This document shows, piece by piece, positions 708 through 36,749 of a stretch of DNA of 45,292 nt (positions are counted from its first letter, which is position 1; the number at the start of each line of letters is the position of its first letter). A program made the position numbers and the translations under genes. Origin of the DNA: Herpetosiphon giganteus (lineage in GTDB: Bacteria; Chloroflexota; Chloroflexia; Chloroflexales; Herpetosiphonaceae); contig NZ_JAFBCZ010000041.1 in NCBI RefSeq assembly GCF_016907925.1, forward strand, positions 1 to 45,292, read 5' to 3'. The notes below the pieces were generated by a model. The model saw nothing but the letters and a program-made list of their open reading frames with translations, searched no databases and was not told the DNA's origin.

Positions 708-2708
708 TTAGCGAACAGTTCTGCTTTGGGTAAAGGCTGGCAAACAGCCGTTGAATGGATAGTGGTGTGATTCACCATAGCCAATCAATGAGTTGCCAAT
801 CAAGGTGCCATTGATTTGGCCATTGTTGAAGTTGACATCAGCAAATGGAGCCAAAATCGTGCCCTTGATCCCAATCCCATCCAACTTGAAGCTGGTAGCT
901 TGGTAGAAGTTGTAGACAATCTTGGTTTGGTCAACATTGGTCAAGAAGGTTTCGAAATATTGCATCTTATTATCAAGACCGCTGATATTGACCAACACGG
1001 TTGAGCCAGCAGGAACATTGATGTGTAAGCCATTGGCTTTGCTCAATTCAGTTCCATCAACCGTGAAGATATTGGCGCTGGCATTGGTTCCGGTCAACTT
1101 GACTGCACCATATTCATAGACAGTCGTGCCGTTGGCGCTCAATGCACCCCACGCTTGTGAGCGCTCGCGCAAGAAGCTTTGTTCGTTGGCAAAGTTGATT
1201 GGTTGGCCTTGGCGAACCGTACCATTTTGAACGCTTACGCCATTCAATGATTGGCTCGTGCCATACACGACGTTACCGTTATAGACCGAGCCGTTGGTGT
1301 AGGTCAATGAACCGCCAGCAATCAAATCGTCGCGCGTCCCATTCGAGTTGGTCAAGCGCACGCCAACCCCAAAGTTTTGGAAGTTGATGTTGCCACCAGC
1401 TGCAACCCGACCTTCAATATCGGTGTTGCTTTGGGTAATATTGCCAAAGGTAAAGACATTGAAATCGCCAGCAGTGCCTAACCCTTGTGGGATACATTGG
1501 TTACCTGGTACCGGCGTACTGGTTGGTACTGGAGTACTAGTTGCGGTTGGAACTGGCGTATTGGTCGCAGTTGGCAACGGCGTATTGGTTGCGGTTGGCA
1601 ACGGCGTGTTGGTCGCGGTTGCGGTTGGTGTGCTCGTCGCAGTTGGCACTGGCGTGTTGGTCGCGGTTGGCAACGGCGTATTGGTCGTGGTTGCGGTTGG
1701 TGTGCTCGTTGCAGTTGGCACTGGCGTGTTGGTTGCGGTTGGCAACGGCGTGTTGGTCGCAGTTGCGGTTGGTGTGCTCGTCGCGGTTGGCACTGGCGTG
1801 TTGGTCGCGGTTGGCACTGGCGTGTTGGTCGCGGTTGGCGTGCTGGTTGGCGTGCTGCGGCGAATGCTGAAATTGACAGCAACTGGCTCACAGCGAATTG
1901 CCAACGATTCACCAAACAAACCAACATAGGTTGCGCTCAAGCGATAATCGCCTTCAGGCTTGGTGCTCGAATCCCAACCATTTGGCTGAGCGCCATTATT
2001 GCCCATGAAATAGTATGGCGAGTTTACATCGGTGTAATTGGTGGTTTGCGCACCAGTCAAAGCAAACTCAACTTTTTGGGGCAAAGCACCAGTAACTTCA
2101 GCTTGGATATTCAAAACGCCACTGACCAATTGGTTATTGCTCACCCCGCTCAAGCGGCTAATTTGGCCTTGAGCACAAACTTCTTGAACTGGAGGCGCAC
2201 AATAGCTGGTGTTGGGGAAGCGGGTTGAAAGCAAACGATCGCCATAGCGTTGGCCAACCAGTGATTGCAACACTGGCCCACGGAAAATATCGAGTTGGGC
2301 TTTGCAATCAGGAATTGCAACATCCATGGTGATGGTTTGGCGTGGCCCAACAGTATACAGCGTGTAATCAAACACTTGTTGGTTGCCAATCCGATCATCA
2401 AACATTCGATAGGAGGCAATCCCAACCTGATAGGCACAATTGTACGAGTTATTGTACACAGCCCCAGCGGTGTTGGAGGTAAACCAGCCAGTCAATGAAC
2501 GAGTATTCGTTGCATCACAAATAGCCGGAGTTGGAGTGGGTAACACTACGGCGACTGCTGGTGAAGAGACCGATTCCACCACTCGCACTGTAGCTTGCAC
2601 TGCCTGCGGTGTTTTGACTGTTTGGCGTGGAGTTGCAGCCCAAACGCTAAAAGGAACGCCTAGGACCGCCACCAGCAACACGGCCAACCAAACGACACGT
2701 TGCTTCAT
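708..2708 (-). CDS. secreted choice-of-anchor A domain protein with Thr-Pro repeat linker
   Basis: A 666-residue exported protein. Residues 1-24 are a signal peptide (MKQRVV, hydrophobic core, cut after VWA). A cysteine-containing module follows (about 63-175), then an Ig-like module (about 176-282), a low-complexity linker of TPVPTATN-type repeats (about 283-401), and a C-terminal choice-of-anchor A domain (about 402-655) with the typical [20 protein letters not shown] opening. That domain is usually found in cell-surface or spore-surface proteins. The seven or more cysteines in the N-terminal half suggest disulfides. GAGGGTG precedes the start. A possible promoter lies at 2760-2787 and the terminator at 670-697. 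No enzyme motif is seen; adhesion or sheath structure is a guess. Confidence 0.8.
1505..1857. repeat. in-frame tandem repeat encoding the Thr-Pro linker
   Basis: The DNA is built of short TPVPTATN-type units arranged in a 72-bp higher-order repeat (24 residues). The same landmark TGTGCTCG recurs at 1629, 1701 and 1773, exactly 72 bases apart. Because 72 is a multiple of three, gain or loss of units keeps the frame. Long open frames on both strands across this stretch are a by-product of the repeat. Confidence 0.85.
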
Positions 2709-2759
2709 AAAGCACCCTCAATAATAGAGCTAAAGTACTACACAAATAAAGACCTTTCT

Positions 2760-2787
2760 ATCATAATCTAGCCATACTATAAAGCAA
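2760..2787 (-). promoter_or_regulatory. possible promoter of the choice-of-anchor A gene
   Basis: Read on the minus strand, TTGCTT (2782-2787) and TATGAT (2760-2765) are 16 bases apart, giving a leader of about 45 bases. The -35 box matches only in part. Confidence 0.35.
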
Positions 2788-2977
2788 GGTGGAGATTTGT
2801 TTTTATTATGTGTGAATATCGCAACATCTTTTTTAGTCTGGTACTAGGACTTTCAGCACATACGCTTTTCATTCATTCATGCATAAATTCATTAAAATTT
2901 TATATCCTAGATCGCCTATTAATCTAAATATTTATTAAAACGGTGATTATTGTACGGCAACGAGCATTTTATCGTGC

Positions 2978-3010
2978 CCAACAAAAGCAAAGCCCGCCGA
3001 TTGGCGGGCT
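2978..3010 (-). terminator. terminator of the STAND NTPase gene
   Basis: On the minus strand AGCCCGCC and GGCGGGCT pair around AATC (2991-3010), followed by the T-rich TTGCTTTTGTT. It lies 24 bases past the stop codon of the 3035-5425 gene. Confidence 0.75.
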
Positions 3011-3034
3011 ACAACGTTAAGCTTGCTGAAGATC

Positions 3035-5425
3035 TTAGCGCGCTAAAGCAGTTTTGGTCGCCTGTAAGGCAGCGGCGAAACTCAAGGCCACGCTTGGCTC
3101 AAGCTGATCGAGGCCAGTTTGGGCCAGCCATTGTTGCTCGGCGACACTTTGATACAAGCCACGTTCTTGGCGAATTTGTTGCGCAGTTGCCATTAATTGC
3201 GCTGCCAATTCTGGGTGGGTTGCTGCTACCAGCGCGGCGCAGTGCTGCATAATCATCAAATCGTAGCGCCGTAGCTCTGTTGTTGCTGCAATTGCAAGCA
3301 TATCTTGCGCTTGCTGTTGCATTGCAGCATGATCATTGGTTGCAAGTGCTAGGCGCGTTGCTAAAATCGCATGATATAAGCGAAATTCTTGAATCAATGC
3401 CTCAATTGGTTCAAGCTTAGCTAAATATTCGCTAGCTTGAGCATAATTTCCTGTTGCAATTGTTATTTCTGCTTGTTTAATCCAACTTCGTTGCATTGCT
3501 TCTTGATTACCAACGGCGCGCCAAGCTTGCTCAGCCTCGCCAAAATGCAGCTCAGCTTGGGCATAATCAGCTTGTTCAGCTGCCGCAATTCCCCGGGCAT
3601 AGCGAATATAGGCCAAATTATCGTGATCGTTAATGGCATAGGCATTAACAAACGCTTGATCAAACCATTGCTTCGCCTCAGCATAGCGTCCATAATCAAC
3701 CGCCACTAAACCTAAATTGATTTGGCTAAGAAACATATCCCATGTTTGATTCAGCTGTTGCTTAAGCGCAAGTGCTTGCTCAAAATAGTCTTGGGCGGTG
3801 GCTAATTGATTGCGTTCTTGGGCTAGAGTACCAAGATTATGTAACATCAAGATTTCGCGTTGTTGATTGCCAACCGTGCGCGCCAAGGCCAACGCTGCCT
3901 CAAACGCTACTTGTGAATCGTGCAAACGGCCAAGCGTGCCATATAAAACTGCCAAATTACCAATTGCGCTGATCTCATCGTGCGGTAATTTCAGTTCCTG
4001 CCATAAACGTCGAGCTTCAATTAAATATGCTTCAGCTTCAGTAAATCGATTCAAGCTAATTAACAAACCACCTAATCCGGTGGCAATGCGTGCAATTGCG
4101 CTTAAATCACTGCGATTTGGGTGCTGATAGGTTTGTTCGAGCCAAGCAACTGCTTCACGATACGCGCTTGTCCGATACCAATAAAAATAAAGGTTGCCAG
4201 CAATGCGCTGGGCAATCAGACCATCGCTGCTTTCAAGCGACCAACTGATCGCTTGGCGAATATTATGAATCTCGCCCCGAGCCTGTTCGATCCATTTCGC
4301 ACCATCAGCGCCGCGAATCTGCTGATGGACTGATTCACTCAAGGTTTGGTAATGCAAGGCATGACGCTCTTGCAAATAATAAAAACGGCCTGTTTTTTGC
4401 AATTGCTCAAGGGCATATTCACGCACTGCATCAATCATAATAAAGCGCGGTTGTTGGCCAGGCAATTGTTCAGTTTGCAGCAAATGGCGATCAATCAGCG
4501 CATTCAGGCTGGTTTCAAACGGCAAACCCTCAACCAAACCAACCTGTTTAATCGTCTCGCTGGTTGCCCCGCCAGCAAAAACACCCAACTGGATAAAAAT
4601 ATCTTTGGCATCGGCGGGCAACATGCTGACGCTCCATGCCAGCACTGGCTTAATAATCGCTTGGCGCGCCGATTGCTTGGGGTTCAAAGCAGCCATCGAA
4701 AGATGATTGCGCACAAAAAATAATAAATCTTGCGGGGTAAGCGAGGCACTATGGGCGGCAATTAACTCAATCGCCAAGGGCAAGCCTTGCACCAACCGAC
4801 AAATATCGACCAAAGCGGCGGCGTTATCGGCACTCAAACGAAAGCGCGGCTGGCGCGTCCGCATGCGTTCAACAAACAAATTAACCGCGCTATACTGCTC
4901 TAAAGCTTCAAGACTATAGTCTTCGCCAATCTCTGGGTATTGCAAGGCAGGCACCATAATTGGGGTTTCATCGGCAACTTCAAGCGCTTGGCGACTGGTA
5001 ATCAAACAGGTTAGGCCAGGTGCGCGCCGCAACAAAACTTGAATTTCGCTGGCAGCTGCGGACACTTGCTCAAAATTATCCAGAATTAACAAAATTTGCT
5101 TATCGGCTAAAGCCAAAACCAACGAATCCAAGATTGCTTCATTGTGCGATTCTTCAACGCCGAGCGTCGCTGCAATCGTTGGCAACACAAATTGAGCTTG
5201 TGAAACTGGAGCCAAGGCCACAAAATAGCGCCCATCGCGAAAAACCTCGCCGACTTGCTCAGCAACCTCTAAACTGAGACGGGTTTTGCCAGCCCCACTT
5301 TGGCCATATAATGTTACCAAGCGCGCTTGAGCATCCAACAAAAGGTCGAGCACCAAGGTGCGAGCACGGGTGCGACCAATGAGGCGCGTGGCATATTGGG
5401 GCAATTGTGATGGTAATAATGGCAT
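3035..5425 (-). CDS. STAND-class NTPase with TPR repeats, no effector domain
   Basis: A 796-residue AfsR/MalT-like ATPase. It opens with the LPQYATRLIGR entry motif found just before the NB-ARC domain in such proteins, then Walker A GQSGAGKT (41-48) and Walker B LLILD (112-116). An LPLAIELIAA stretch and a winged-helix-like part (about 230-345) follow, then TPR repeats (about 390-690). Relatives usually carry an N-terminal SARP, OmpR or LuxR domain, but here the protein starts directly at the entry motif. The start is supported by GAGG about 9 bases upstream, and no longer in-frame extension with a domain is seen. It could act by binding a partner or a ligand. It is monocistronic with a clear terminator. 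The core resembles that of the regulator at 33194-35869. Confidence 0.85.
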   Translation of the reverse strand: MPLLPSQLPQYATRLIGRTRARTLVLDLLLDAQARLVTLYGQSGAGKTRLSLEVAEQVGEVFRDGRYFVALAPVSQAQFVLPTIAATLGVEESHNEAILDSLVLALADKQILLILDNFEQVSAAASEIQVLLRRAPGLTCLITSRQALEVADETPIMVPALQYPEIGEDYSLEALEQYSAVNLFVERMRTRQPRFRLSADNAAALVDICRLVQGLPLAIELIAAHSASLTPQDLLFFVRNHLSMAALNPKQSARQAIIKPVLAWSVSMLPADAKDIFIQLGVFAGGATSETIKQVGLVEGLPFETSLNALIDRHLLQTEQLPGQQPRFIMIDAVREYALEQLQKTGRFYYLQERHALHYQTLSESVHQQIRGADGAKWIEQARGEIHNIRQAISWSLESSDGLIAQRIAGNLYFYWYRTSAYREAVAWLEQTYQHPNRSDLSAIARIATGLGGLLISLNRFTEAEAYLIEARRLWQELKLPHDEISAIGNLAVLYGTLGRLHDSQVAFEAALALARTVGNQQREILMLHNLGTLAQERNQLATAQDYFEQALALKQQLNQTWDMFLSQINLGLVAVDYGRYAEAKQWFDQAFVNAYAINDHDNLAYIRYARGIAAAEQADYAQAELHFGEAEQAWRAVGNQEAMQRSWIKQAEITIATGNYAQASEYLAKLEPIEALIQEFRLYHAILATRLALATNDHAAMQQQAQDMLAIAATTELRRYDLMIMQHCAALVAATHPELAAQLMATAQQIRQERGLYQSVAEQQWLAQTGLDQLEPSVALSFAAALQATKTALAR

Positions 5426-33193: not shown

Positions 33194-35869
33194 TCACGAA
33201 ATCTCAATCATAAGCACCTTCAATACTTGGTCAGGGCTACTCTGCAAGCCTTGCTGCCAATAAGAATCATATTCAGCTAAGATCTGTTGCAACTCGATTA
33301 AACGTGCTTTATGTTTCCGTCGATCATTACCATCGAGCAAATTAGTAGCTTCTGCTGCTCTTTGTTGCATAAAACCAGCAAGCCATGCTGCCGATTGCCA
33401 TTGCTTTTGCCCAAGATAACATTCTGTCAACTCTAAAATAGCACGCAGGCTATGGGCGATAAATTCGTGCTGGAAAGCTAATTTAATTGCTTGAAGAATT
33501 AATGATTGGGCCTGGATATATGCTGCTTGTTGGCGCAACGCCCAGGCTTTTTGAATCGTAATATGGCAAATAAAATAGGGATCACCAATAACATAGCTAT
33601 TGGTTAGGGCTTGCTCATAATAGGCATTTGCTTGAGTACATTGATTTAATTGGGTCAAACTATCTGCAAGATTTGTACAGATCATGGCAATACCGCGTTT
33701 ATTTTGGAGCTGCTGATGAATATCTAGTCCTTGTTGATAGTAATCGTGTGCCTGCTGATAGTTACACGTATCACATGCCAACAAGCCTAAACTATTTAGA
33801 ATATTTGCTGCCATATGATGATCATTTACTTGTCGCGCTAATACCAACGATTCTTCTAAATCATTTTGCGATTGTTGATATTGCTCAAGGCTACGGCGGA
33901 TTTCGCCAAGGTTACTTAATATTGCTGCCAAATCACGATGTTTATCAAAGTGGCGAGCCAGCTGAATCGCTTCAGTAAAAGCTTGGGCTGCTTGTTCAAA
34001 TAAACCTTCGCGTTTATACAGCAAACCAATACTATTTAATAAACCCATTGCCAAATCATCATGCTGTTCTTGACGAGCGATTGTTAATCCTTGGGTTAAA
34101 TAGTGCTCTGCTTGCTGAAAATTGCCTTGATTGCGCATAAACGTGCTTAACCCACGTAACATCATAATATGATGGGTTGGCGTAATCTTTTCTCCGTGAG
34201 CAAGAATTTGCTGAATCCAATAACTTCCTTCTTGAGCCATATCCGCTCGATTCCAAAAATTCCACAGCATAGCGCCTAAATGGGCTGCACTTGCAAGCGT
34301 TCCCCATTTAAGGCTATAGCCAATTGCGGCGCGAATATTGGGATAATTAGCTTGAAATTTCTGCATCCAGTGTTGTTGGGCTGAGCCTGTTAATTCATGA
34401 ACATGATGCTGAACAAACATTCGATAATAATCAGTATGCGCTGTATAGTAGTGTTGGCTATCAGCTCGTTGATTTAATTGATCTTGGGCATATTCGCGGA
34501 TTGTTTCCAAGAAATAAAAACGTTGTTCAGTTTTTTGATGCTGAAGCAGATGTTTTTGCACCAAGCTTAATAACAATAATTCAATTGCTGATTGTTCAGC
34601 ACTAGCACAAATTGCAGTAGCTGCTGGCAGATCAAAGCTGCCAACAAAAACTGATAATTGGACAAATAGCGCTTGTTCTTGAGGTGTAAGTAAAACATAG
34701 CTCCATTCGATAACTCCATGCAAGGTTTGGTGGCGGGCTGGTACATCGCGTAGCCCACTATTGATAAAACTCAAGCGTTGGCTTAACCGCTCAAGTAAAT
34801 TTGTTAATGAAAACAAGCTGATTCGGCTGGCAGCCAGCTCAATTGCCAACGCCAAACCATCAAGCCGTTGGCAAATTTGGGCAATCGTTGCTAGTTCAGC
34901 ATCGTTATACGCAATCGTTGCTTGTAGCGCTTGAGCACGGGCGAGAAAAAGATTAACTGCTGGTTGTTGGCTCAACATGAATTGTTGCGAAAGTTCAACG
35001 CTAAATGGCAGTAATTCAAAACGTTGCTCAGCATACACATTCAACGCTTCGCGGCTGGTCGTCATTAGCTTTAATTGTGGTGCATGGGCTAAGAGATCGG
35101 TCACAATTGGCGCAGCATCAAGTAGTTGCTCAAAATTATCGAGAATAAGCAAAAGTTGTTTATCATACAGAAAATCTTTGAGCTGTTTGAGTAACGGTAA
35201 TTGATTACTAGTTTTAATCGCTAAAGATTGAATAATTGTCTGTATTAATAGCTCAGGATCGCGCAAAGCAGCTACATGCACAACATGCACGCCATGATGA
35301 AAGAGCGGCAACCATTGCATGGCACTTTGGAGCACTAAACGGGTTTTGCCAACCCCACCAACGCCTAAAACGCTAATTAAGCGAATATGCGGCTGACGGA
35401 GAAGCTGCCACAAGGTTTGTTGCTCGTTTTCGCGGCCAATAAAGGCATTCAGCGGCGCAGGAATATTGGTATAGCTAATTGGTGGTACAACCAACGAGGT
35501 TGGCTCAGGCGTTGGCACACTTGGTACATTTGGCGTTGGCAACGCAAAACGATACCCTAAATCGGCCTCGGCCAGAATATAGCGTGGCGGTTTATCGCCC
35601 AATTTCTCGCGCAAACGGCCAATCGCTACATGCAACAAATAGCTACTATCACGTTCATAATTATCGCCCCAAACATGCCGCAAAAGCTGACGATGGCTCA
35701 GCACATGATTGCGATTGAGCACCAACAACTCCAACAAACCCCACTCTTTGCGCCCAAGCCGCACATACACTCCCGCCCGCTTGACTCGCTGCTCAGTCAA
35801 ATTAATCTCAAGTTCATCTATCGTAATGATTGAATCGACAGCCATATGCACCTTCCCTGCATTCGCCAT
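33194..35869 (-). CDS. winged-helix STAND NTPase regulator with TPR repeats
   Basis: 891 residues. An OmpR-type winged helix (about 15-110) has KEWGLLELLVLNRNHVLSHR, QLLRHVWGDNYERDSSYLLH and the DLGYRF wing. After a Pro-rich linker and the FIGRENE entry motif comes the NB-ARC ATPase, with Walker A GVGGVGKT (169-176) and Walker B LLLILD (239-244), followed by TPR repeats (about 590-850). Such AfsR/MalT-like proteins are held inactive until a ligand lets them oligomerise on DNA. Start 35869 has GAGGG upstream; 35845 is an alternative. The divergent intergenic region holds two four-repeat clusters (35887-35929 and 36127-36170), probably its operators. The C-terminus ends in LKVLMIEIS. Confidence 0.9.
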   Translation of the reverse strand: MANAGKVHMAVDSIITIDELEINLTEQRVKRAGVYVRLGRKEWGLLELLVLNRNHVLSHRQLLRHVWGDNYERDSSYLLHVAIGRLREKLGDKPPRYILAEADLGYRFALPTPNVPSVPTPEPTSLVVPPISYTNIPAPLNAFIGRENEQQTLWQLLRQPHIRLISVLGVGGVGKTRLVLQSAMQWLPLFHHGVHVVHVAALRDPELLIQTIIQSLAIKTSNQLPLLKQLKDFLYDKQLLLILDNFEQLLDAAPIVTDLLAHAPQLKLMTTSREALNVYAEQRFELLPFSVELSQQFMLSQQPAVNLFLARAQALQATIAYNDAELATIAQICQRLDGLALAIELAASRISLFSLTNLLERLSQRLSFINSGLRDVPARHQTLHGVIEWSYVLLTPQEQALFVQLSVFVGSFDLPAATAICASAEQSAIELLLLSLVQKHLLQHQKTEQRFYFLETIREYAQDQLNQRADSQHYYTAHTDYYRMFVQHHVHELTGSAQQHWMQKFQANYPNIRAAIGYSLKWGTLASAAHLGAMLWNFWNRADMAQEGSYWIQQILAHGEKITPTHHIMMLRGLSTFMRNQGNFQQAEHYLTQGLTIARQEQHDDLAMGLLNSIGLLYKREGLFEQAAQAFTEAIQLARHFDKHRDLAAILSNLGEIRRSLEQYQQSQNDLEESLVLARQVNDHHMAANILNSLGLLACDTCNYQQAHDYYQQGLDIHQQLQNKRGIAMICTNLADSLTQLNQCTQANAYYEQALTNSYVIGDPYFICHITIQKAWALRQQAAYIQAQSLILQAIKLAFQHEFIAHSLRAILELTECYLGQKQWQSAAWLAGFMQQRAAEATNLLDGNDRRKHKARLIELQQILAEYDSYWQQGLQSSPDQVLKVLMIEIS

Positions 35870-35886: not shown

Positions 35887-35929
35887 ATGTTCGGCATCAT
35901 GTTAGCCGATGTTGGCTGAAATGTTAGCA
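35887..35929. promoter_or_regulatory. four direct repeats next to the regulator start
   Basis: ATGTTCGGC (35887), ATGTTAGCC (35899), ATGTTGGCT (35909) and ATGTTAGCA (35921) repeat in the same direction at intervals of 12, 10 and 12 bases, about one helical turn each. OmpR-type winged helices bind such direct repeats. The cluster begins 18 bases before the regulator's start codon, which fits autoregulation. Confidence 0.6.
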
Positions 35930-36126
35930 GCCACGCCTACGCTAAACCTGTTTATTCGCGATCAACAAAGAAGTTATTGCGATAACCAATCACCTGCCCA
36001 AATACTAGTTCAAATCAACCTGCAGTTGCTACAATGTGCAAGAACAATACGTCTACGATGCTAATTGCAAGCGTAGCGTTTGCATCGCCAATGGCCAAAC
36101 AATTGTGTATTATGACTACTAGATAA

Positions 36127-36170
36127 ATGTTAGCCTAAACGTTAGTCCAATGTTGGTTCGGATGTTAGTC
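36127..36170. promoter_or_regulatory. four direct repeats upstream of the membrane protein gene
   Basis: ATGTTAGCC (36127), ACGTTAGTC (36139), ATGTTGGTT (36150) and ATGTTAGTC (36162) share the consensus ATGTTRGYC with the cluster at 35887 and have intervals of 12, 11 and 12 bases. The last repeats cover the -35 region of a -10 box at 36179, the placement used by OmpR/PhoB-type activators. Confidence 0.65.
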
Positions 36171-36178
36171 GGTCGGTC

Positions 36179-36217
36179 TATGATTGTTCCATCAACTGTT
36201 TTATTGATGGAGCAATC
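36179..36217 (+). promoter_or_regulatory. -10 box and start-proximal hairpin of the membrane protein gene
   Basis: TATGAT (36179-36184) is a good -10 box without a clear -35. GATTGTTCCATCAA (36182-36195) and TTGATGGAGCAATC (36204-36217) form a 14-bp stem with one T-G pair and an 8-base loop, ending 3 bases before the ATG. The second arm includes GGAG, the ribosome site. If transcription starts within the first arm only part of it is in the mRNA, so it may instead be a DNA-level operator. Confidence 0.45.
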
Positions 36218-36220
36218 GTT

Positions 36221-36688
36221 ATGTCACACGCAACAAGCCCAGCCCTCGCTAGCAAACCCAAAGCCCTGCCAATCGCTGCAATTGTGATGTTGGTTGGTAG
36301 CTTGATTATGGTTGTTGGGCTTTTTCTACCCTACGTTTCGAGCAACGCCGACAGCAGCATCAACGTGAGCGTCATCGATGTGCTCAAAGAAGAGAGTGAT
36401 TTAGTGCAATCTGGGGCGAAAGTGCTCTATGCGCTCATTGCAGGCTCGGTTGGGCTAAGCCTCTTGTTGAGCGCTCTGGCATTAACTGGCAAAAAAGTGT
36501 GGGGCTGGTTGGCAGTTATCTTGAGTTTTATTATTGCTGGTTTCAATGGTTTAATGGCATTGATGCCCAACGAAGGCAAATCGGTGCAAATTGATAGTGC
36601 AGCAACCGTGATTGCTGGTGCAGCGCTAGTAGTCTTTGCTGCAAGCATTGGCTTTTTAATTCGCAAAAAACCAGTTAATCAAGCTTAA
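36221..36688 (+). CDS. small four-helix membrane protein
   Basis: 155 residues with four likely membrane helices (about 17-38, 67-88, 93-113 and 125-147). The first is AIVMLVGSLIMVVGLFLPYV, followed by an extracytoplasmic loop SSNADSSINVSVIDVLKEES (about 40-60). The protein ends in RKKPVNQA, so both ends are probably cytosolic. No family is recognised. GGAG precedes the ATG but lies inside a hairpin arm. Upstream repeats suggest control by the STAND regulator that diverges from it. It could be a target or a sensor partner of that regulator. Confidence 0.75.
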   Translation: MSHATSPALASKPKALPIAAIVMLVGSLIMVVGLFLPYVSSNADSSINVSVIDVLKEESDLVQSGAKVLYALIAGSVGLSLLLSALALTGKKVWGWLAVILSFIIAGFNGLMALMPNEGKSVQIDSAATVIAGAALVVFAASIGFLIRKKPVNQA

Positions 36689-36711: not shown

Positions 36712-36749
36712 AAGAGCGCATGATCAACCCTGATCATGCGCTCTTTGTT
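36712..36749 (+). terminator. terminator of the four-helix protein gene
   Basis: AAGAGCGCATGATCA and TGATCATGCGCTCTT pair over 15 bp around ACCC, followed by the T-rich TTGTTT on the plus strand. It also lies 30 bases past the stop of the AAA+ gene on the other strand. Confidence 0.8.

What the first reader, a model, noticed from the sequence alone, without database searches (positions are those of the whole stretch)
35887..36170. Two four-copy direct-repeat clusters flank the STAND regulator and a small membrane protein
Eight copies of ATGTTRGYC, all in the same direction, form two clusters of four with intervals of 12, 10, 12 and 12, 11, 12 bases. Repeats at one helical turn are the classic target of OmpR/PhoB-type winged helices, and the divergent gene encodes exactly such a domain fused to an NB-ARC ATPase and TPR repeats. 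One cluster covers the -35 region of the membrane protein gene; the other lies next to the regulator's own start. A self-contained signalling module, regulator plus four-helix membrane protein, is the best candidate here for an undescribed system.
Basis: partly seen in the sequence, partly recalled or inferred. Interest (0 to 1): 0.7.

Follow-up and report, generated by a model that had tools for sequence, protein, structure and literature searches.

The report
Conserved switch for lost RHS gene
Two sets of four short DNA repeats look like landing sites for the protein encoded next to them, which probably switches on a small membrane protein and, in related Herpetosiphon bacteria, a giant toxin-like protein whose gene has been deleted here.

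Summary
The repeats are real and at the stated coordinates. They are the two best four-copy direct-repeat arrays in the window; 0 of 400 simulated windows had one as good as cluster B. The shared unit is better written ATGTTNGY; 3 of 8 copies match ATGTTRGYC exactly. Regulator, membrane gene and both arrays occur in 3 of 5 other Herpetosiphon genomes held. In those three a 2136-2138-aa RHS/YD-repeat gene with a divergent C-terminal tip lies between the arrays: cluster A stands in its promoter position, cluster B in the membrane gene's. In the window the RHS gene is deleted, leaving a remnant of about 130 bp. Repeat cores are invariant at 54 of 56 columns, against 62 of 215 fourfold-degenerate sites of the regulator. 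A TAnnnT hexamer starts 8 bp after the fourth repeat in 8 of 8 arrays, the geometry reported for SARP activators. The patterns used found no third array. Best reading: a local AfsR-like activator without a BTAD domain, serving two promoters. Binding, activation and signal are inferred.

The parts
33194..35869 (-). Regulator gene, 891 aa: PhoB/KdpE-type winged helix (about aa 10-110), NB-ARC/STAND NTPase (150-371), TPR repeats (about 550-760); no BTAD domain found
   Evidence: orthologues 84, 84 and 78% identical in G001, G002, G005; alignment A1
35887..35929 (+). Cluster A: four direct repeats, ATGTTCGGC, ATGTTAGCC, ATGTTGGCT, ATGTTAGCA, intervals 12, 10, 12; in relatives in the promoter position of the RHS gene
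   Evidence: 28 of 28 core columns invariant in 4 genomes
35938..35943 (+). Candidate -10 hexamer TACGCT, 8 bp after the fourth repeat (TAAGCT, TAAGCT, TATGCT in relatives); now points at a deleted gene
35986..36115 (+). Remnant of the deleted RHS gene: 73-74% identical to part of the last fifth of the RHS genes of G001 and G005 over 129-140 alignment columns; not an intact gene
36127..36170 (+). Cluster B: four direct repeats, ATGTTAGCC, ACGTTAGTC, ATGTTGGTT, ATGTTAGTC, intervals 12, 11, 12 (12, 10, 12 in the three relatives); in the promoter position of the membrane gene
   Evidence: 26 of 28 core columns invariant
36179..36184 (+). Candidate -10 hexamer TATGAT, 8 bp after the fourth repeat, identical in 4 of 4 genomes
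36185..36214 (+). Conserved inverted repeat between -10 and start codon; as RNA an 11-bp hairpin that would cover the GGAG ribosome-binding site
   Evidence: -14.8 kcal/mol, z -2.7, 3 of 200 shuffles as good in the window; -17.5, z -4.4, 0 of 200 in G005; G001 and G002 seen by alignment only
36221..36688 (+). Membrane protein gene, 155 aa, four hydrophobic segments, no family above a Pfam cut-off or in NCBIfam
   Evidence: orthologues 85-88%; pairwise dN/dS 0.08-0.13

Best explanation
The two clusters are operator arrays for the winged-helix domain of the adjacent STAND regulator, which acts as a local activator of the AfsR/SARP type. When its NB-ARC/TPR part is switched on by an unknown signal, four winged-helix domains sit head to tail on the array (two pairs, 12 bp within a pair, 22-23 bp from pair to pair, so all near one face of the helix) in place of a -35 element, 8 bp from the -10. 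Its regulon is two promoters: cluster A drives a giant, probably secreted RHS/YD-repeat protein with a divergent tip, and cluster B drives a conserved four-helix membrane protein made alongside it. In the window's strain the RHS gene has been lost by deletion; regulator, both arrays and the membrane gene remain. Shown: the arrays, their conservation, geometry, orientation, neighbouring genes in relatives, and the deletion remnant. Inferred: that this regulator binds them, that it activates, the tetramer, the signal, secretion, and the role of the two target proteins.
For: Arrays are the top two in the window and beyond chance. Regulator, RHS gene, membrane gene and both arrays occur together in G001 (H. 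aurantiacus DSM 785), G002 and G005 (H. llansteffanensis CA052B), and all but the RHS gene in the window's genome. Core columns invariant: 28 of 28 (A) and 26 of 28 (B), against 62 of 215 fourfold-degenerate sites of the regulator gene and pairwise dS of 0.2-0.9 in the membrane gene. TAnnnT hexamer 8 bp downstream in 8 of 8 arrays, all pointing to the downstream gene; published SARP sites have direct repeats 11 or 22 bp apart with the 3' repeat 8 bp from the -10 (passages of PMC10936776 and PMC4393881), and CcaR, a SARP, uses triple heptamers (passage of PMC3992018). Winged helix closest to KdpE/PhoB among solved structures; the NTPase part also matches AfsR there, E 2e-5. Exactly two four-copy arrays in each of 4 genomes with the regulator, none in 2 without, reversed-pattern control 0 in all 6. 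Relaxed scan with -10: 22 matches, of which the 8 with at most one mismatch are these arrays; the other 14 (two mismatches) do not exceed the 26 of the control. RHS remnant in the window.
Against: No binding, expression or mutant data. The pattern scans were designed from these arrays, and the two genomes without the regulator lack the whole module, so co-occurrence within the genus is not independent evidence. Only four genomes hold the arrays and G001 and G002 are close. Each genome has 51-62 matches to this protein (some are winged-helix-only or TPR-only), so another regulator could be the binder. There is no BTAD domain, the part that contacts the polymerase alpha subunit and much of sigma in AfsR (PMC10936776, passages). 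The figure of 8 bp depends on counting the repeat as 9 bp, and I knew the SARP rule before looking. Spacing alternates 12 and 10, not a strict 11. Of 25 other RHS matches I looked upstream of 16 and found no such array.
Confidence: 0.7

Rival explanations
1. The arrays are operators of the adjacent regulator, but it represses: four copies over the -35 region block polymerase until the STAND protein is released; cluster A would also repress the regulator's own divergent promoter.
For: Only 17 bases separate cluster A from the regulator's start codon, so it must overlap or lie downstream of the regulator's promoter; OmpR-type proteins can repress (general knowledge).
Against: The sigma-70 consensus scan lists no site ending at either proposed -10, so neither has a good -35, as expected for activator-dependent promoters. 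The fixed 8 bp to the -10 and the head-to-tail order match SARP activators.
Confidence: 0.15
2. The arrays are bound by a different OmpR/PhoB-type regulator encoded elsewhere (for example a response regulator), and the STAND gene only happens to lie beside them.
For: The genus encodes other OmpR-type winged helices up to 54% identical to this one.
Against: The patterns find the arrays only at this locus, and within the genus only in genomes that carry this regulator. A global response regulator would be expected to have further sites.
Confidence: 0.1
3. The repeats are not protein sites but edges of a mobile or recombining cassette around the RHS gene.
For: The two arrays have the same orientation and bracket the RHS gene in 3 of 3 relatives; the gene is deleted in the window.
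Against: The deletion junctions in the window lie between the arrays, not in them, and an internal piece of the gene is left. The repeats keep a fixed distance to a -10-like hexamer. The empty site in G004 lacks the whole module, with edges outside the arrays.
Confidence: 0.05

Closest known systems
AfsR and other large SARPs (Streptomyces antibiotic regulatory proteins)
   Same: N-terminal OmpR-type winged helix, NB-ARC-type NTPase, C-terminal TPR; direct repeats near one face of the helix in place of the -35, 3' repeat 8 bp from the -10; gene beside its targets
   Different: No BTAD/BTA domain found (winged helix ends at about 110, NB-ARC begins at about 150); four repeats with 12/10/12 spacing rather than two at 11 or 22; predicted targets are an RHS protein and a membrane protein in Herpetosiphon (Chloroflexi), not antibiotic genes. 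A link of SARPs with RHS/YD genes is not without precedent: an Rhs family gene is lower in a ccaR (SARP) mutant of S. clavuligerus (table passage of PMC3992018), and abyK, a YD-repeat gene, lies in the abyssomicin cluster with two SARP genes (passages of PMC3625739)
PhoB/KdpE-type response regulators
   Same: Winged helix closest in sequence to KdpE and PhoB; head-to-tail binding to tandem direct repeats about 11 bp apart (family knowledge; start of abstract of PMC4832192 for PhoP: 7-bp motifs, 4-bp spacer)
   Different: No receiver domain; STAND NTPase and TPR instead
RHS/YD-repeat polymorphic toxins (Rhs, WapA, TcC-like; names recalled)
   Same: YD repeats, SpvB-like part, Rhs-associated core, conserved core followed by a divergent tip, hydrophobic signal-like N terminus
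   Different: Tip of about 180 aa has no Pfam family; no variable immunity gene behind it but a conserved four-helix membrane gene with its own promoter array

Membership tests
SARP family (AfsR type) | OmpR-type winged-helix DNA-binding domain at the N terminus | tested here: met
   Trans_reg_C 36-108, E 4.2e-18; KdpE chain best in PDB for this part
SARP family (AfsR type) | BTAD (bacterial transcriptional activation domain) after the winged helix | tested here: not met
   No BTAD model among the Pfam families listed up to E 1 for two orthologues (21 and 20 families); only about 40 residues between winged helix and NB-ARC
SARP family (AfsR type) | Large SARPs: NTPase (NOD/NB-ARC) and TPR C-terminal parts | tested here: met
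   NB-ARC 150-371, TPR_12 E 6.6e-23; AfsR chain 8k60 matched over 164-462 at E 2e-5. The NCBIfam AfsR model itself is far below its cut-off (54 of 1430 bits, through TPR)
SARP family (AfsR type) | Direct repeats 11 or 22 bp apart | tested here: inconclusive
   12, 10, 12 in 7 of 8 arrays, 12, 11, 12 in one: alternate copies are 22-23 bp apart, neighbours 10-12
SARP family (AfsR type) | 3' repeat 8 bp from the -10 element | tested here: met
   8 of 8 arrays, counting the repeat as the 9-mer; rule. The -10 hexamers are predictions
SARP family (AfsR type) | Activates transcription from the bound promoter | not testable with these tools
   Needs reporter or transcription assays
RHS polymorphic toxin system (the gene lost from the window) | YD/RHS repeats and Rhs-associated core | tested here: met
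   RHS_repeat E 1.8e-17, SpvB E 7e-8; Rhs_assc_core E 9e-20; G005 protein only was scanned
RHS polymorphic toxin system (the gene lost from the window) | Conserved core followed by a divergent C-terminal tip | tested here: met
   G001/G002: 91-100% in 100-residue blocks up to 1900, then 73, 30, 2% (last block is short); tips of G001 and G002 33-51% identical to that of G005
RHS polymorphic toxin system (the gene lost from the window) | Cognate immunity gene directly downstream | tested here: inconclusive
   The next gene is the conserved membrane gene (85-88%), which does not vary with the tip
RHS polymorphic toxin system (the gene lost from the window) | Toxic activity of the tip | not testable with these tools
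   No Pfam family above cut-off; the AlphaFold model of the tip is not usable (mean pLDDT 34)

The most novel reading that the evidence does not exclude
A BTAD-less class of AfsR-like STAND activators that binds four-repeat arrays as a pair of dimers and runs a closed two-promoter switch: one promoter for a giant secreted, divergent-tipped RHS effector of a predatory bacterium, the other for a conserved membrane protein that is its partner (transport, protection or signal return). In the window the effector has been discarded while switch and partner are kept.
Probability: 0.35. Interest if true: 0.6.

Novelty: new variant of a known kind. Interest (0 to 1): 0.5.

Why it matters
It gives a predicted binding site, two target promoters and a small regulon for one member of a large protein group of Herpetosiphon (51-62 matches per genome). 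In the paper listings I saw (the first 12, 12, 12 and 4 rows) none describes such targets. It ties control of a possible predation effector to an AfsR-like switch and offers a simple test of whether a winged helix without a BTAD domain can activate from SARP-like geometry. The window is also a natural deletion of the effector, useful as a comparison strain.

Tried and rejected
Further regulon members: the R3-R4 plus -10 pattern with up to two mismatches in 6 genus genomes gave 22 matches, 8 of them the known arrays and 14 at two mismatches, against 26 for the reversed-pattern control. A two-copy pattern in the window's genome gave 3 matches: cluster B and two that lie in longer open frames of 439 and 438 codons. 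In the locus scan three weak three-copy groups with nearly all copies at two mismatches also turned up, one each in the window, G001 and G002.

Arrays at paralogues: I scanned 45 loci, 3 of them of this system, for three or four 8-mers at 10-12 spacing; 9 of the other 42 gave matches, for example a three-copy GATAATCA in L043; none has the ATGTTNG unit, and I did not check which are coding. A closer look at the first 1.7 kb of the six winged-helix STAND paralogues (L022-L027) gave only weak matches; two of the six (L022, L026) lie on the minus strand, so there the stretch was the 3' side. Upstream of RHS homologues: 16 of the 25 other matches were examined; two gave weak groups (L117, and L129 with a four-copy 8-mer at 5 mismatches that starts at the frame's first base), and the G003 pair one weaker still; none has the ATGTTNG unit. 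So I saw no sign that the arrangement is general.

Structure: AlphaFold of the membrane protein (3 sequences, mean pLDDT 47, four helices) and of the RHS tip (2 sequences, mean pLDDT 34) are too poor, so no fold search was run.

Immunity gene: considered for the membrane protein and kept only as one of several roles, because it does not vary with the tip. Insertion of the RHS gene in the relatives, rather than deletion in the window, was rejected because the window keeps an internal piece of the gene.

Limits: the regulator was searched in whole genomes only within the genus; the scan of genome contigs with its alignment used two peptide patterns and gave 2 loci, both in this genus. The membrane protein was searched in 31 genomes; outside the genus only G007 and G008 gave weak matches, 34-36%.

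Literature: in the listings I saw no paper on this locus. One search did list papers that hold both SARP and Rhs or YD-repeat; I looked at passages of three: an Rhs family gene is lower in a SARP (ccaR) mutant (PMC3992018), a YD-repeat gene lies in the abyssomicin cluster with SARP genes (PMC3625739), and in PMC5819245 the YD-repeat name belongs to the match of a Diels-Alderase. The two Herpetosiphon genome papers PMC6210107 and PMC3368417 do not hold 'Rhs', 'YD repeat', 'toxin' or 'AfsR' in the main text. Subscription papers and supplements were not searched.

Full report
Observation. The eight repeats are present exactly where stated, in one direction, with intervals 12, 10, 12 and 12, 11, 12. 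The quoted consensus ATGTTRGYC fits 3 of 8 copies exactly, 4 with one mismatch and 1 with two; ATGTTNGY describes them better. A motif-free scan of the whole window for any 9-mer repeated four times at 10-12-base intervals puts these two clusters first and second. In 400 simulated windows (second-order Markov) 11 held a cluster as good as the weaker one, none held one as good as the better one, and no two shared a consensus.

Genes. The gene at 33194-35869 (-) encodes 891 aa with an OmpR/PhoB-type winged helix, NB-ARC and TPR repeats. Among solved structures the winged helix is nearest to KdpE and PhoB, and the NB-ARC part also matches AfsR. No BTAD domain is found. The gene at 36221-36688 (+) encodes 155 aa with four hydrophobic segments and no family above a curated cut-off.

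Relatives change the picture. Among the 5 other genomes of the genus held, 3 have orthologues of both genes (regulator 84, 84, 78%; membrane protein 87, 85, 88% in G001, G002, G005) and 2 (G003, G004) have neither, only paralogues. In all 3 the two genes are not neighbours: between them lies one frame of 2136-2138 aa. The G005 protein has RHS/YD repeats, an SpvB-like part and an Rhs-associated core; all three have a hydrophobic stretch near the N terminus. Identity between the three is 71-93% over the first 300 residues, 81-100% per 100-residue block from 300 to 1900, and falls in the tip of about 180 residues: the tips of G001 and G002 are 33-51% identical to that of G005, as in polymorphic RHS proteins. 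Cluster A lies between regulator and RHS gene, cluster B between RHS gene and membrane gene. The window's genome still has one distant RHS homologue elsewhere (35%).

The window is a deletion derivative. It keeps the leader of the RHS gene, then jumps to an internal piece of it (35986-36115: 73-74% to the RHS genes of G001 and G005 over 129-140 columns, 85% over 68 bases to that of G002) and then to cluster B. By eye, leader and internal piece share about nine bases, with one difference, at the left junction. In G004 the whole module is missing: the two flanking genes stand 85 bp apart. In G003 the module is absent and the two flanking genes lie on different contigs; in G001 and G002 the left-hand flanking gene also lies elsewhere. 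So the locus exists as full, without RHS, and empty.

Conservation of the arrays. Across the 4 genomes the seven core positions of the repeats are invariant at 28 of 28 columns in cluster A and 26 of 28 in cluster B, while only 62 of 215 fourfold-degenerate sites of the regulator gene are invariant; pairwise dS of the membrane gene is 0.2-0.9. The sixth base differs between copies but is kept across genomes in 7 of 8 copies, as expected if each place in the array is selected separately. The membrane gene of the window has 12 private amino-acid changes at sites where the other three agree, against 6 for G005; this may be a slight relaxation after the loss of RHS, untested.

Geometry. In 8 of 8 arrays (two per genome) a TAnnnT hexamer starts exactly 8 bp after the fourth 9-mer: TACGCT, TAAGCT, TAAGCT, TATGCT for A and TATGAT in all four for B. 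That is the reported layout of SARP sites: direct repeats 11 or 22 bp apart, 3' repeat 8 bp from the -10 (passages of PMC10936776 and PMC4393881). I knew this rule before looking, and the figure 8 depends on counting the repeat as nine bases. The order 12, 10, 12 places alternate copies 22 bp apart, two helical turns. The consensus scan lists no sigma-70 site ending at either hexamer, so there is no good -35. Both arrays point to the downstream gene, cluster A away from the regulator.

Regulon. A four-copy pattern finds exactly two arrays in each of 4 genomes with the regulator and none in 2 without it; the reversed control is 0 in all 6. A looser pattern including the -10 finds nothing more above control: 14 further matches at two mismatches against 26. 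The patterns were made from these arrays, so the useful part is that they show no third site.

Mechanism. Most likely the STAND regulator, once switched on, binds four winged-helix domains head to tail and activates two promoters, for the RHS protein and for the membrane protein. Binding by this regulator, activation, and the role of both products are inferred. The main rival is repression; a different OmpR-type binder is less likely because sites were found only here.

Membership. It works like a large SARP but fails one defining feature, the BTAD domain, so I do not file it as a SARP. In AfsR the BTA domain contacts the polymerase alpha subunit and much of sigma, and the winged helix contacts sigma and beta' as well (PMC10936776, passages), so activation by winged helices alone is conceivable. 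A SARP with RHS in its reach has loose precedents: an Rhs family gene is lower in a ccaR mutant of S. clavuligerus (PMC3992018, table passage), and a YD-repeat gene sits in the abyssomicin cluster with SARP genes (PMC3625739, passages).

Verdict. New variant of a known kind, interest 0.5.

Noticed in passing
36185-36214: Inverted repeat between the -10 and the start codon of the membrane gene (arms fully paired in G001 and G005, one inner mismatch in G002, one G-U in the window; G001 and G002 by eye); as RNA it would hide the GGAG ribosome-binding site. If transcription starts about 7 nt after the -10, part of the 5' arm is not transcribed, so it may instead be a DNA operator.
   Followed up: partly
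3035-5425: The window holds a second STAND-type gene (796 aa, 29% to the regulator's NB-ARC/TPR part).
   Followed up: no
L118 (G003:C50:3000-13000, reverse complement), about 2664-5198 and from about 5460: Another STAND gene divergent from an RHS gene, with a different N-terminal part and no repeat array seen between them: RHS next to STAND may be a recurring pairing.
   Followed up: partly
L135:3419-3970, L136:3407-3958: RHS tips of about 180 aa, 33% identical to each other, no Pfam family above cut-off; relatives of the tip found only at this locus, in 3 of 6 genus genomes.
   Followed up: partly
36712-36745: Strong terminator-like inverted repeat between membrane gene and the following convergent ATPase gene; a similar one stands at the empty site of G004.
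   Followed up: no
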